This document shows, one piece after another, positions 1,019-4,787 of a stretch of DNA of 15,971 nucleotides. Position numbers and translations under genes: made by a program. The DNA is from Bacilli bacterium (lineage in GTDB: Bacteria > Bacillota_I > Bacilli_A > ML615J-28 > CAG-698): assembly GCA_028693885.1 (NCBI GenBank), contig JAQUUM010000011.1, positions 1 to 15,971 of the forward strand, written 5' to 3'. The notes beneath the pieces were generated by a model. The model had not been told where the DNA came from, did not search any database, and worked only from the letters and a program-made list of their open reading frames with translations. How positions within the stretch are numbered: the stretch's first letter is position 1; the number at the start of each line of letters is the position of its first letter.

Positions 1019-2350
1019 TTATCCTTCATATTGACTGAATGAGCAAGTTTGACCTTTAAATATTAAAGGCACTTCTCCAGTTGGTCCTTGTCTATTTTTA
1101 AGTATTAATAATTCAGTTCTAGAATTTAATCTTTTGACTGTTTCATCATCAGTTTTTGGAGCCGTTTTTTTATGTAAAAACATTACGATGTCAGCATCTT
1201 GTTCAATACTTCCTGACTCTCTTAAGTCAGCTAGCATTGGTGATCTACTTTCTTTATCACGTTTTTCAATATCTCTGGACAATTGTGATAAAGCAATAAC
1301 CGGAATATCTAATTCTCTGGCTAACACTTTTAGCATTCTTGAAATCTTACTAACCTGCTCATATCGGCTTTTACCATCAGCTGTGATTAATTGCATATAA
1401 TCAATTATTAATAGATCTAATTTAGCATCTCTTTGTAGTTTTTGACAACTTAATCTAATATCTTGAATATCCGTAAAACTATCATCATATAGGTTTAATT
1501 TATATTTTGAAATTTGGTTTTTAGCAAAATAAATCGAAGCCATATCATCGTCAGTTAATTTACCTTTTTTAATATCATTTAGTGGAACAGCTGAAACACT
1601 ACTTAGAATTCTCATTACTAATTGAGGGTTACCCATTTCTAGTGAGAAAAAAGCTACCGCTTTATCCATAGTTTTACAAACATGAGTTGCGATATTCAAA
1701 GCTAAAGTAGATTTACCCAAAGATGGTCTAGCAGCTAAAATTACTAATTCACCTTTTTGAAATCCATTTGTTATTTCATTAAGTTTTGTAAAACCTGTAT
1801 CTATTCCTGTTAAATTGTTATCGTTTTTTCTAATATCTTCTATTGCATCTAAAACTTCATCAGCTACAGAACCTACATCAACAAAGCTTGTTGCTTTTCT
1901 TTTAGCAACAACAGCATTAATTTTTGTCAAAGCAAATTCCATTAATTCCTTCAAAGGCATCTCATTAGATTTAGCTTTGTCAGAAATTTCTTTAGTTACA
2001 TCTAAAAGTCTTCTTCCTAATGCTTTTTCTTTTGTTGATTCAATATAGCTCTCAGAAGCTATATAAGATGGTGCAGATTCCATTAAATTAATTAAATATT
2101 CTTCGCCACCGATTTCATTTAATACTCCCATTCGCGATAACTCTTCAGCTACACTGCTATGATCAATTTTCTCTTTTCTGTTATTAATTTTTTCCATAGC
2201 TCTAAAAATATTCTTGTTTTTTCCATCAAAAAACTCTTCTTCTTTTAGAGAAGCTAAAACATCACTAGCTGTTTTTTCATCGATTAAGGCACTACCGATT
2301 AAAAAATCTTCAGTTTGAGTATTAAAAGGTGAGTTTAATTTATCATTCAT
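1019..2350 (-). CDS. dnaB: Replicative DNA helicase DnaB
   Basis: Hexameric 5'-3' helicase that unwinds the replication fork (called DnaC in Bacillus). At 443 residues it is of normal family length. An N-terminal helical domain (about 10-110) and a linker precede a RecA-like ATPase. Visible motifs: TGIDTGF (181-187), Walker A ARPSLGKST (207-215), catalytic Glu in SLEMG (236-240), Walker B LLIIDYMQL (313-321) and the RESGSIEQDADIVMFLH segment (377-393) that carries family-conserved ATPase residues. No intein is present. The ATG overlaps the end of the upstream gdpP-rplI gene by 8 bp, and a GGAG about 10 bases upstream, inside that gene, is the likely ribosome binding site. This implies translational coupling. 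prfA follows after 3 bases. The rplI-dnaB order is ancestral in Firmicutes. Confidence 0.97.
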   Translation of the reverse strand: MNDKLNSPFNTQTEDFLIGSALIDEKTASDVLASLKEEEFFDGKNKNIFRAMEKINNRKEKIDHSSVAEELSRMGVLNEIGGEEYLINLMESAPSYIASESYIESTKEKALGRRLLDVTKEISDKAKSNEMPLKELMEFALTKINAVVAKRKATSFVDVGSVADEVLDAIEDIRKNDNNLTGIDTGFTKLNEITNGFQKGELVILAARPSLGKSTLALNIATHVCKTMDKAVAFFSLEMGNPQLVMRILSSVSAVPLNDIKKGKLTDDDMASIYFAKNQISKYKLNLYDDSFTDIQDIRLSCQKLQRDAKLDLLIIDYMQLITADGKSRYEQVSKISRMLKVLARELDIPVIALSQLSRDIEKRDKESRSPMLADLRESGSIEQDADIVMFLHKKTAPKTDDETVKRLNSRTELLILKNRQGPTGEVPLIFKGQTCSFSQYEG

Positions 2351-4787
2351 TTTTTGCCATCTCCACTACATGAACAGTAATATTAGCTAGCACATCTTTA
2401 TGAAGTTGAATCGGAATTGTATAAGTACCTAGTGCTTCAATATCTTTATCATATAAAATCTTTCTTTTTTCTAATTCAATATCATGTTGTTTTTTAAATT
2501 CTTCAACGATTTGTTTGTTCGTAATACTTCCAAAAAGTTTTCCGTTTTGACCAACTCTAACCGCTACTTTTATACTAAGAGCTTCCACTGTCTTTTTTAA
2601 CTCTTGCATTTCTTCAAAATGCTTTTGTTCAGCAGCTTTAGCTTGTAAGTTTTTAAATTCTAATTGTTTTATATTATCAACAGTTGCTGCAATAGCCTCA
2701 TTATTTCTGATTAAGAAATTAGCATGCCCATTAGGAACGTTAATAATTTCATTCTTTTTTCCTTTTCCTTTAACATCCTTAGTAAGAATAACTTTCATAT
2801 CCACTTTACCTTCTTCCTTAACTTTAGCTAATTTACTTATTAATAATTCTTTCGCTGCTTCTAATGTAGTATCAGTTAATTGAGCAGCCGCATTATTAAA
2901 ATGACCGCCACCACCTAACTCTTCCATAATTACTTGAACATTAACACCTTCTAAACTTCTAGCGCTAATTCCAATTTCTGTTTGACTTATTTTTCCAATA
3001 CAAAAAGCAGCTTCTACTTTGTCAATATTACTTAATTCATCAGCAACCTTTGCTAATAAATTTCTTTGGTAAATTTCATCTTCTCCTACTGCAACCATAA
3101 AAGAATCCTCAACTAAAACAGCATTATTTAAAATAACTGCTTTTTTAGTGTAATCAATGTAGTCTTCTCTTAAATATTTTTTTGCTTTTGCCATATTTGC
3201 TTGTAATTTATTAAGAGATGCTAATACATTAAATGTTCTATCAGAAGTTCTATAAGTAAATGAATTAGTATCAATTAATATACCCATCATCATCCAAGTT
3301 GCTTCTTCTTCTGAAATTTCAATTTTACTAAGCTCTAAGAATCCCATCAATTCTACTACTAACTCAACACTAGATGATGCACTAGTTTGAATATGTGAAT
3401 AAATTTGATTATCAATAGCATTTGTATTTCTTCTGTGATGATCTATTACAGCTATCTTATGAGCTTTTTTATATATTTTTTCTTCCATTAAAATATTAGC
3501 ATATTGGCAATCAACAATTACTAAAAGTGTATTTGTATCTATCAAAGCTAAGGCTTCTTTTCTATTAACTAAATAATTTAAAACATTAACATGCGAAAGT
3601 TTAATGTGTTTATAAATACTCTTAACAGTATCATCTACTAATTCTTCTTCAAAAACCATATGTGAAGATTTATTTAAAGATAACGCAATCTTTTGAAGTG
3701 CAAGCGATGAAGCAAAAGCATCAGCATCCATATTAATATGTGAAAGAATTATAACATTTGATGCTTTAAGCATTAAATCTTTTAGTTCTAAAGCCTTCAT
3801 TCTAATATATGGTGATGCGATAGTTTCAAAGCCTTCGATAAGCGCTCCATAATATTTAACTTCTTCGTCTTCTAAAACAGCCGCTTGGTCTCCCCCACGA
3901 CTTATCGCAAGATTAAGTTGTTCTAAAGCTAAATCAGCTAAAGAGTTTGAATCAACATCTTTACAGGCAATTCCAATACTAGCACTTACTCTAATGCTAT
4001 ACTTAATACAATACTCTTTTAGAGTTGATAAAATATCTAATTTACTTTTTTTAATTTGTTGCAATTGTGAATTATCTAATACAAGTAAAAATCTTTCTTC
4101 ACTATAACCTTTAATATAAAAATCATATTTATTAGCCCATTCTTCTAATATACCAATCATATTACTAATATGTAGGGCTTTACTTTTTGTATCAAAAGAT
4201 ACAAGTGCTTCATCTAAATTATCAAGATTAATTATTCCTAAAGCTAAAGTTCTTTCTTTATAACGCTTTTCTATTTTTTTTTGTTCAGTAACATCTGTCA
4301 TATAAATAATATTATACTCATATAAAACTCTACACTGAAAAACTTTGCCATATACTTTTATATCAAAATCACTAGCTTTAACTATTAATTGTTTTGCTAA
4401 ATTTTTATTTATATTTTCAATATTTCTTTCGATTAATTGATTCATAAAAATTTCTTTAGCAAACTTATTAACCCATTGAATAACATATTCATCATCAAAA
4501 ATTAAAATTGCAATTGGAATTTCATTAAATGAAACTTCCCCGGCTTTTTGGACACGAAAAGAAATAGAATTCCATAAGGTCATTCTTTTTTCTAACCATT
4601 CTAATTTTTTTTGACTTTTCATATTAAAATTAACCATATTAATAACCAAAGAAGCAGTTAACGCTACGCCCAAAGAAAGATAGGCAACTAAAGGCGATGT
4701 TTCTTCTATTAATGCAAAAACAAAAACTGCTAAGCCTAAAATTATTATGATTAATAAAGTTAATAATATTCTGTTTTTCTGTTTCAT
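2343..4787 (-). CDS. GdpP-type c-di-AMP phosphodiesterase fused to ribosomal protein L9
   Basis: One 814-residue frame holds two normally separate proteins. Residues 1-663 match full-length GdpP (YybT): two membrane helices (about 8-26 and 33-52), a PAS-like region (85-170), a degenerate GGDEF domain with YSEERF (229-234) in place of the signature, then DHH/DHHA1 phosphoesterase motifs H350/D354/D356, D426 in IVDCQ, DHHRR (449-453), D506 in GILIDTNSF and GGGGH (625-629). GdpP hydrolyses c-di-AMP to pApA at the membrane. Residues 664-814 are a complete L9 of 151 residues: the N domain starts MKVILTKDVKGKGKK, a long helix spans about 705-735, and a C domain contains LFGSITNKQI. L9 binds 23S rRNA near the L1 stalk. 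There is almost no linker. Start: ATG with GAGGAA upstream. The stop is TGA, overlapping dnaB. From memory, the same fusion is annotated in Acholeplasma and phytoplasmas. Whether it is processed is unknown. Confidence 0.95.
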   Translation of the reverse strand: MKQKNRILLTLLIIIILGLAVFVFALIEETSPLVAYLSLGVALTASLVINMVNFNMKSQKKLEWLEKRMTLWNSISFRVQKAGEVSFNEIPIAILIFDDEYVIQWVNKFAKEIFMNQLIERNIENINKNLAKQLIVKASDFDIKVYGKVFQCRVLYEYNIIYMTDVTEQKKIEKRYKERTLALGIINLDNLDEALVSFDTKSKALHISNMIGILEEWANKYDFYIKGYSEERFLLVLDNSQLQQIKKSKLDILSTLKEYCIKYSIRVSASIGIACKDVDSNSLADLALEQLNLAISRGGDQAAVLEDEEVKYYGALIEGFETIASPYIRMKALELKDLMLKASNVIILSHINMDADAFASSLALQKIALSLNKSSHMVFEEELVDDTVKSIYKHIKLSHVNVLNYLVNRKEALALIDTNTLLVIVDCQYANILMEEKIYKKAHKIAVIDHHRRNTNAIDNQIYSHIQTSASSSVELVVELMGFLELSKIEISEEEATWMMMGILIDTNSFTYRTSDRTFNVLASLNKLQANMAKAKKYLREDYIDYTKKAVILNNAVLVEDSFMVAVGEDEIYQRNLLAKVADELSNIDKVEAAFCIGKISQTEIGISARSLEGVNVQVIMEELGGGGHFNNAAAQLTDTTLEAAKELLISKLAKVKEEGKVDMKVILTKDVKGKGKKNEIINVPNGHANFLIRNNEAIAATVDNIKQLEFKNLQAKAAEQKHFEEMQELKKTVEALSIKVAVRVGQNGKLFGSITNKQIVEEFKKQHDIELEKRKILYDKDIEALGTYTIPIQLHKDVLANITVHVVEMAKNE

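What the first reader, a model, noticed from the sequence alone, without database searches (positions are those of the whole stretch)
2343..4787. Full-length GdpP and full-length ribosomal protein L9 in one frame
Residues 1-663 make a complete GdpP with its DHH active-site residues intact. Residues 664-814 make a complete L9 that starts at its normal MKVIL. The join looks like loss of only the gdpP stop codon and the intergenic bases between two genes that are neighbours in Bacillus. It physically links a membrane c-di-AMP hydrolase to a ribosomal protein. I recall the fusion being annotated in acholeplasmas and phytoplasmas, so it may be lineage-wide rather than new, but I know of no study of its function.
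Basis: partly seen in the sequence, partly recalled or inferred. Interest (0 to 1): 0.7.

Follow-up and report, generated by a model that had tools for sequence, protein, structure and literature searches.

The report
Ribosomal protein gene nested inside gdpP
A bacterial gene that looks like an enzyme fused to ribosomal protein L9 appears to keep a second start signal inside it, so one reading frame probably makes both the long fusion and ordinary free L9.

Summary
In detail: window 2343-4787(-) is one open 814-codon frame, complete GdpP (1-663) then complete L9 (664-814). The fusion itself is known: NCBI has a model for it (NF011110). It is clade-wide: all 137 L9-bearing genomes that I checked in eight families are fused.

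The new part is inside. In 133 single-copy fusions the L9 start codon is ATG 126, GTG 6, TTG 1, nothing else. A Shine-Dalgarno-like site precedes it: mean -10.0 kcal/mol, against -1.7 at 2301 other in-frame ATGs and -9.2 at 28 free L9 genes. In 126 of 133 genes it is the strongest site of any in-frame ATG. In two lineages that gained a second, free L9 gene just downstream, the site is gone in 4 of 4 fusions and the start codon in 3 of 4. There the attached L9 has also lost two glycines that free copies keep, but stays full length.

Best reading: one frame, two proteins. Internal initiation supplies ribosomal L9; GdpP keeps an L9 tail. There is no protein-level evidence, and the window's own site is among the weakest (-6.8, 128th of 133).

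The parts
2343..4787 (-). gdpP-rplI fused reading frame, 814 aa; predicted long product GdpP-L9
2799..4787 (-). GdpP part, residues 1-663: two N-terminal hydrophobic stretches (read by eye), PAS, degenerate GGDEF, DHH, DHHA1
4785..4787 (-). start codon of the long product (ATG)
4796..4802 (-). Shine-Dalgarno-like AAGAGGA before the long product
   Evidence: read by eye; not scored separately for the window
2809..2819 (-). internal Shine-Dalgarno-like stretch AAGGAAGAAGG before L9 (duplex -6.8 kcal/mol over the -19..-4 region)
2796..2798 (-). internal ATG, retained rplI start codon
2343..2798 (-). nested rplI frame; predicted free L9 of 151 aa, same stop codon as the long frame
1019..2350 (-). 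dnaB-like helicase frame, starts 8 nt inside the end of rplI (named by eye; neighbour, not part of the mechanism)

Best explanation
One reading frame encodes two proteins. Initiation at 4787 gives GdpP-L9, a membrane c-di-AMP phosphodiesterase with an L9 tail. Independent initiation at the retained rplI ribosome-binding site and start codon (ATG 2796-2798) gives free 151-aa L9 for ribosomes. The arrangement arose from an overlapping or abutting gdpP-rplI pair when the gdpP stop was lost in frame; rplI kept its own start. Shown from sequence: the open frame, the conserved start codon and site, and their decay where a second L9 gene exists. Inferred: that ribosomes initiate there, and in what amounts. 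Inferred less firmly: that the attached L9 is itself kept by selection as a domain of GdpP.
For: Start codon ATG 126, GTG 6, TTG 1 of 133 single-copy fusions; site -10.0 on average, 130 of 133 at or below -6, against 90 of 2301 other in-frame ATGs; 28 free L9 starts -9.2. Strongest in-frame ATG site in 126 of 133 genes, the window included (-6.8; next best of 18 others -5.6). All eight families show it. GGAGG occurs in three phases (51, 22, 2). 120 of 133 sites beat the mean of their own synonymous recodings; codon choice in the linker is skewed towards the site in f22 (AAG 18/18 vs 315/1275), f13 (CAG 20/21 vs 213/865), f2 (GAG 17/28 vs 69/641). Start region less folded (4.5 vs 7.2 kcal/mol; 67 and 335 sites). 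Natural control: with a second free L9, first codon AAG, AAG, ACT, ATG and sites -2.4, -2.4, +0.4, -0.4.
Against: No protein or ribosome-profiling data. The window's own site is weak for the set (128th of 133) and no better than recodings of its peptide (p 0.40). Only 39 of 133 genes beat recoding singly at p<0.05 (median p 0.16), and in f1, f10, f15, f20, f21 the gain over recoding is small, so there the site could follow from the peptide. Named phytoplasmas are weaker (-5.4, -1.0, -7.6, -5.7); L200 at -1.0 has no clear site though ATG is kept. L070 keeps ATG despite a second L9. The genes are related, so the 133 are far fewer independent cases; GTG comes from three genera only.
Confidence: 0.85

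Rival explanations
1. Only the long protein is made, and ribosomes take up L9 while attached to membrane-bound GdpP, tethering ribosomes to the membrane.
For: The frame is open in 137 of 137 fusions, and L9 is complete.
Against: It gives no reason for the start codon and the site to be kept, nor for their decay where a second L9 exists. It would make L9 as scarce as a membrane enzyme (inference).
Confidence: 0.05
2. The long protein is made and cut by a protease to release L9.
For: Not tested; would also give free L9. The linker before L9 varies in sequence.
Against: No conserved cleavage motif is visible in the linkers (by eye). Does not explain start codons or site.
Confidence: 0.06
3. Two products, but the GdpP-attached L9 is a passive by-product with no function.
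For: In single-copy genomes L9 is constrained by free L9 anyway, so its conservation says nothing about the tail. With a second copy the attached L9 evolves faster than the free one (pN 0.152 vs 0.092, p 0.02), and for the more distant pair L043/L065 dN 0.61 is close to dS 0.67 (near saturation).
Against: No fission among 137 fusions although 9.1% of amino-acid-changing single-base changes in the 12 linker codons would make a stop and the fused clade spans about 52 changes per site (FastTree): a rough count expects dozens if stops were free. Attached L9 is full length in 4 of 4 second-copy genomes and in the close pair L037/L043 under purifying selection (pS 0.38, pN 0.15, p 4e-6).
Confidence: 0.35
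4. The L9 first Met and the purine-rich linker are conserved for protein reasons, not for initiation.
For: L9 begins with a beta strand where Met, Val or Leu would fit (recalled); recoding shows the peptide alone often yields a site (mean -6.8).
Against: Val is GTG in 6 of 6, although GTG is 45 of 398 Val codons in those genes; Leu is TTG in 1 of 1; synonymous codons are skewed in f2, f13, f22; in L037 and L043 the linker reads KEEE in codons without the site.
Confidence: 0.08

Closest known systems
NCBIfam NF011110 / PRK14538, 'putative bifunctional signaling protein/50S ribosomal protein L9'
   Same: Same domain order over nearly the full model (positions 58-835 of 838, 613 bits).
   Different: The window is below the model's cut-off of 707 bits; 41 of 392 genomes searched pass it. 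The model's name treats it as one bifunctional protein; no internal start is stated in what I saw.
gdpP-rplI operon of Bacillus and relatives (PMC4568413, passages)
   Same: Same genes, same order; rplI site often lies in the end of gdpP.
   Different: Separate proteins with a stop between; often a 4-nt overlap.
Two-polypeptide phage endolysins encoded in single genes (PMC9430671, abstract)
   Same: In-frame internal start gives a C-terminal protein with the same stop as the long one.
   Different: Phage lysis enzymes, shown by experiment; in some cases both products assemble. Here the short product is a ribosomal protein of a cellular gene.
Cas11b from within cas8b (PMC11899642, abstract)
   Same: Translation from an internal in-frame Met gives a separate C-terminal protein.
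   Different: Archaeal, a subunit important in the same CRISPR system, shown by experiment.

Membership tests
GdpP c-di-AMP phosphodiesterase | PAS, degenerate GGDEF, DHH and DHHA1 domains in order | tested here: met
   all over Pfam cut-offs
GdpP c-di-AMP phosphodiesterase | DHH/DHHA1 metal-site residues | tested here: met
   invariant in 24 fusions; roles recalled
GdpP c-di-AMP phosphodiesterase | hydrolysis of c-di-AMP; a cyclase in the same genome | tested here: inconclusive
   DAC domain present in the genome; activity not testable
Ribosomal protein bL9 | complete N and C domains | tested here: met
   (TIGR00158, 106.7 bits, cut-off 58.6)
Ribosomal protein bL9 | presence in the ribosome | not testable with these tools
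   -
NF011110 / PRK14538 | curated score cut-off 707 | tested here: not met
   613.3 bits, although the architecture is the same
Two-product genes with in-frame internal start | start codon and ribosome-binding site inside the frame, more than chance | tested here: met
   weak in the window itself
Two-product genes with in-frame internal start | both polypeptides detected | not testable with these tools
   -

The most novel reading that the evidence does not exclude
After the fusion the L9 fold became a working part of GdpP. Free L9 from the internal start serves ribosomes; the attached L9 has a second, non-ribosomal role, for example assembling with itself or with free L9, or docking the phosphodiesterase. 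In two separate lineages with a second L9 gene that role is laid bare: the attached copy lost G24 and G90 (4 of 4), which free copies keep (4 of 4), but kept other conserved positions and its open frame.
Probability: 0.4. Interest if true: 0.8.

Novelty: new variant of a known kind. Interest (0 to 1): 0.62.

Why it matters
Several of these ~815-aa proteins are named '50S ribosomal protein L9' in public sources, which hides both a c-di-AMP enzyme and a second start. If the reading is right, one frame supplies a ribosomal protein and a second-messenger enzyme in Acholeplasma-, Anaeroplasma- and Izimaplasma-type bacteria and phytoplasmas. It also offers a natural experiment: where a free L9 gene appears, the internal start decays and the attached domain seems released from ribosomal duty. 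And it shows a route by which neighbouring genes can fuse without the downstream protein losing its independence.

Tried and rejected
Assembly or sequencing artefact: rejected, same join in 136 other genomes. Hidden stand-alone L9 in the own genome: not found (genome 86.5% complete). Fusion elsewhere: in the named-genome scan 12 of 80 kept loci carry a fusion (L193-L200, L203, L204, L208, L210: Acholeplasmatales, Acholeplasmataceae, Anaeroplasmataceae, Izimaplasma, phytoplasmas, unnamed Bacilli MAGs; one of them also has a free L9); the other 68 are separate. The 'phylum' search drew only from the same class.

Single origin of the fusion: supported by the quick tree (72 rows, SH-aLRT 93) and FastTree (156 rows, one change), but the careful 37-row tree supports it only 55/28, with 60% of bootstrap trees. 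One or two origins remain open.

Left out of counts: L182, L183, L188 from the GdpP trees (broken or short GdpP frames); L177 and L185 have no GdpP hit; L182, L183 from the L9 tree and from the outgroup column and the careful tree of 57 use subsets. Three fusions are shortened by contig ends (L127, L164, L166). Eight f10 genomes of the class draw were not sent; six of them show as fusions, G329 and G341 were not placed. Of family f16 only five genomes were sent.

Structure prediction was not accepted, so fold and linker flexibility are untested. rRNA contacts of G24 and G90 were not checked in a structure. Papers: ten of ten searches used; none of the listings shows a study of this fusion's function or of an internal L9 start. 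The library lacks most subscription journals. PMC4014445, PMC10720645, PMC3750655, PMC3139596, PMC4568413, PMC11229311 were seen as passages only; PMC9430671 and PMC11899642 as abstract and outline.
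Full report
Observation. The window carries one 814-codon frame at 2343-4787 on the minus strand. Pfam finds PAS_GdpP, GGDEF_GdpP, DHH, DHHA1, Ribosomal_L9_N and Ribosomal_L9_C in order. L9 begins at residue 664, nucleotide 2798, and aligns with solved free L9 from its first residue. The genome (86.5% complete, 207 contigs) has one L9_N and one GGDEF_GdpP hit, both here, and a diadenylate cyclase domain elsewhere.

Distribution. In the window's order 39 of 43 genomes have an L9_N hit; all 39 carry the fusion, and three of them (genus g22) carry a second, free L9 beside it. 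In two follow-up sets 30 of 60 and 68 of 68 genomes are fused; the 30 separate ones in the first set are its families f4, f8, f9, f12, f16 and f17. One genome of the second set (G116, f21) also has a free L9. Together 137 fusions come from eight families, f1, f2, f10, f13, f15, f20, f21, f22: 133 with one L9 and 4 with two. Seven further genomes of these families show no L9 hit (G011, G015, G033, G037, G290, G349, G355); none gives a match to the window protein except one weak DHH match in G290, though G011 has a weak match (8.8e-7) to the fusion model. Four named phytoplasmas carry the fusion (L199, L200, L204, L208). A tree of GdpP parts puts the fusions on one side of a branch (SH-aLRT 93, 72 rows; one change among 156 rows), but a careful 37-row tree supports this weakly (55/28), so two origins are possible.

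Ancestral layout. In separate relatives gdpP and rplI overlap by 4 nt (Bacillus, Paenibacillus and others) or 23 nt (f8), or lie a few to some tens of bases apart; in the overlapping ones the rplI site lies in the end of gdpP. In some (G044, G181, G338, G364 and others) both lie in one frame with a single stop between. A very small change therefore suffices for fusion and leaves the rplI start in place.

The internal start. I aligned the L9 part of 137 fusions and 28 free L9 frames and read the DNA at the first L9 codon. In 133 single-copy fusions it is ATG 126, GTG 6, TTG 1. In the six GTG genes GTG is 45 of 398 valine codons; they come from three genera, so the independent events are few. 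Duplex energy of the preceding bases with the 16S tail averages -10.0, 130 of 133 at or below -6; 2301 other in-frame ATGs of the same genes average -1.7, 90 of them at or below -6; 28 free L9 starts average -9.2. In 126 of 133 genes the L9 start has the strongest site of the ATGs compared (codon 61 onward). Each of the eight families shows the same (means -8.9 to -11.0 against -0.8 to -2.0). GGAGG occurs in all three phases (51, 22, 2). Redrawing synonymous codons weakens the site to -6.8 on average; 120 of 133 real sites beat their own recoded mean, but only 39 of 133 singly at p<0.05. The effect is large in f2, f13 and f22 (recoded -3.7, -5.3, -3.7) and small in f1, f10, f15, f20, f21. Codon use in the linker agrees: AAG 18/18 against 315/1275 elsewhere in f22, CAG 20/21 against 213/865 in f13, GAG 17/28 against 69/641 in f2. 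The start region is less folded than at other ATGs (4.5 vs 7.2 kcal/mol; 67 and 335 sites, every second gene). The best site among start codons in the first 70 codons of each frame, a choice that favours strong sites, averages -9.25, so the internal start is about as strong as the main one.

Limits. For the window the site is -6.8, 128th of 133 by strength and not better than recodings (p 0.40), though it is still the best of its 19 compared ATGs. Three of four named phytoplasmas are at -5.4 to -7.6 and one at -1.0. The case for the window rests on its relatives.

Natural control. Four genomes have a free L9 gene directly downstream of the fusion. In g22 (L037, L043, L065) the first codon of the attached L9 is AAG, AAG, ACT and the site -2.4, -2.4, +0.4; in f21 (L070) ATG stays but the site is -0.4. 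Their free L9 genes have sites of -7.2, -5.7, -10.3 and -8.0. In L037 and L043 the linker still reads KEEE but in codons without the site. The L9 tree groups attached and free copies within g22 (81) and within L070 (92), as two local duplications would; the L070 join is between two long branches and less safe.

What the attached L9 does. In the second-copy fusions L9 is still full length (147-150 aa). Between L037 and L043 the attached L9 shows pS 0.38 and pN 0.15 (Fisher p 4e-6), the free L9 0.42 and 0.09. So it is relaxed but not neutral in the one close pair available. For the distant pairs dS is near saturation and the signal is unclear (dN/dS 0.53/0.94 and 0.61/0.67). Of the positions conserved in single-copy fusions, G24 (133 of 133) and G90 (96%) are lost in 4 of 4 attached copies and kept in 4 of 4 free copies; L5, D8, G13, A35, G86, G124 and A138 are kept in all. 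That G24 and G90 lie in rRNA-facing loops is my recollection, not a test. No fission was seen in 137 fusions. About 9.1% of amino-acid-changing single-base changes in the linker would create a stop, and the clade spans roughly 52 changes per site by FastTree. This argument is rough: linker rate and expression effects are not modelled.

Mechanism. Most likely ribosomes initiate both at 4787 and at 2798 of the same frame. The first product is GdpP-L9; the second is free L9, which joins ribosomes. Both initiations are inferred from sequence. Why the tail persists is less certain: a structural or docking role in GdpP, or a passive by-product.

Known or new. The fusion has an NCBI family model (NF011110) and several members are named '50S ribosomal protein L9'. 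PMC4568413 (passages) notes the gdpP-rplI operon. A survey of the mollicute translation apparatus, PMC4014445 (passages), discusses L9 losses and contains neither 'fused' nor 'gene fusion'. In PMC10720645 (passage) L9 and the replicative helicase are among genes down-regulated in a study of Mycoplasma bovis GdpP. Genes giving two products by an in-frame internal start are known from phage endolysins (PMC9430671, abstract) and Cas11b (PMC11899642, abstract). None of the ten search listings shows a report of an internal L9 start or of this fusion's function. I therefore call it a new variant of a known kind.

Noticed in passing
G011 (genus g22), no locus: A 97% complete genome of the second-L9 genus has no L9 hit and no match to the window protein, only a weak match to the fusion model; it may have lost both functions together.
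   Followed up: partly
G169:C2:68555-68686 and G222:C4:18421-18552 (family f7): L9_N lies in a 397-aa open frame in both, longer than free L9 and shorter than the GdpP fusion; possibly another extension of L9.
   Followed up: no
G044, G181, G216, G338, G364, G517 and others: gdpP and rplI in one frame with one stop between: a possible pre-fusion state.
   Followed up: no
window 2343-2350: The dnaB-like frame starts 8 nt inside the end of rplI, so three genes are chained in one transcript-like run.
   Followed up: no
window 4912-5136 (-): A 74-aa frame that looks like ribosomal protein S18 (named by eye), preceded by AAGGAGG; shorter than the cut of my ORF list.
   Followed up: partly
NF011110 model: NCBI's fusion model has a cut-off of 707 bits, which 41 of 392 genomes pass; the window's fusion and other fusions fall short and may be named as plain L9.
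   Followed up: no
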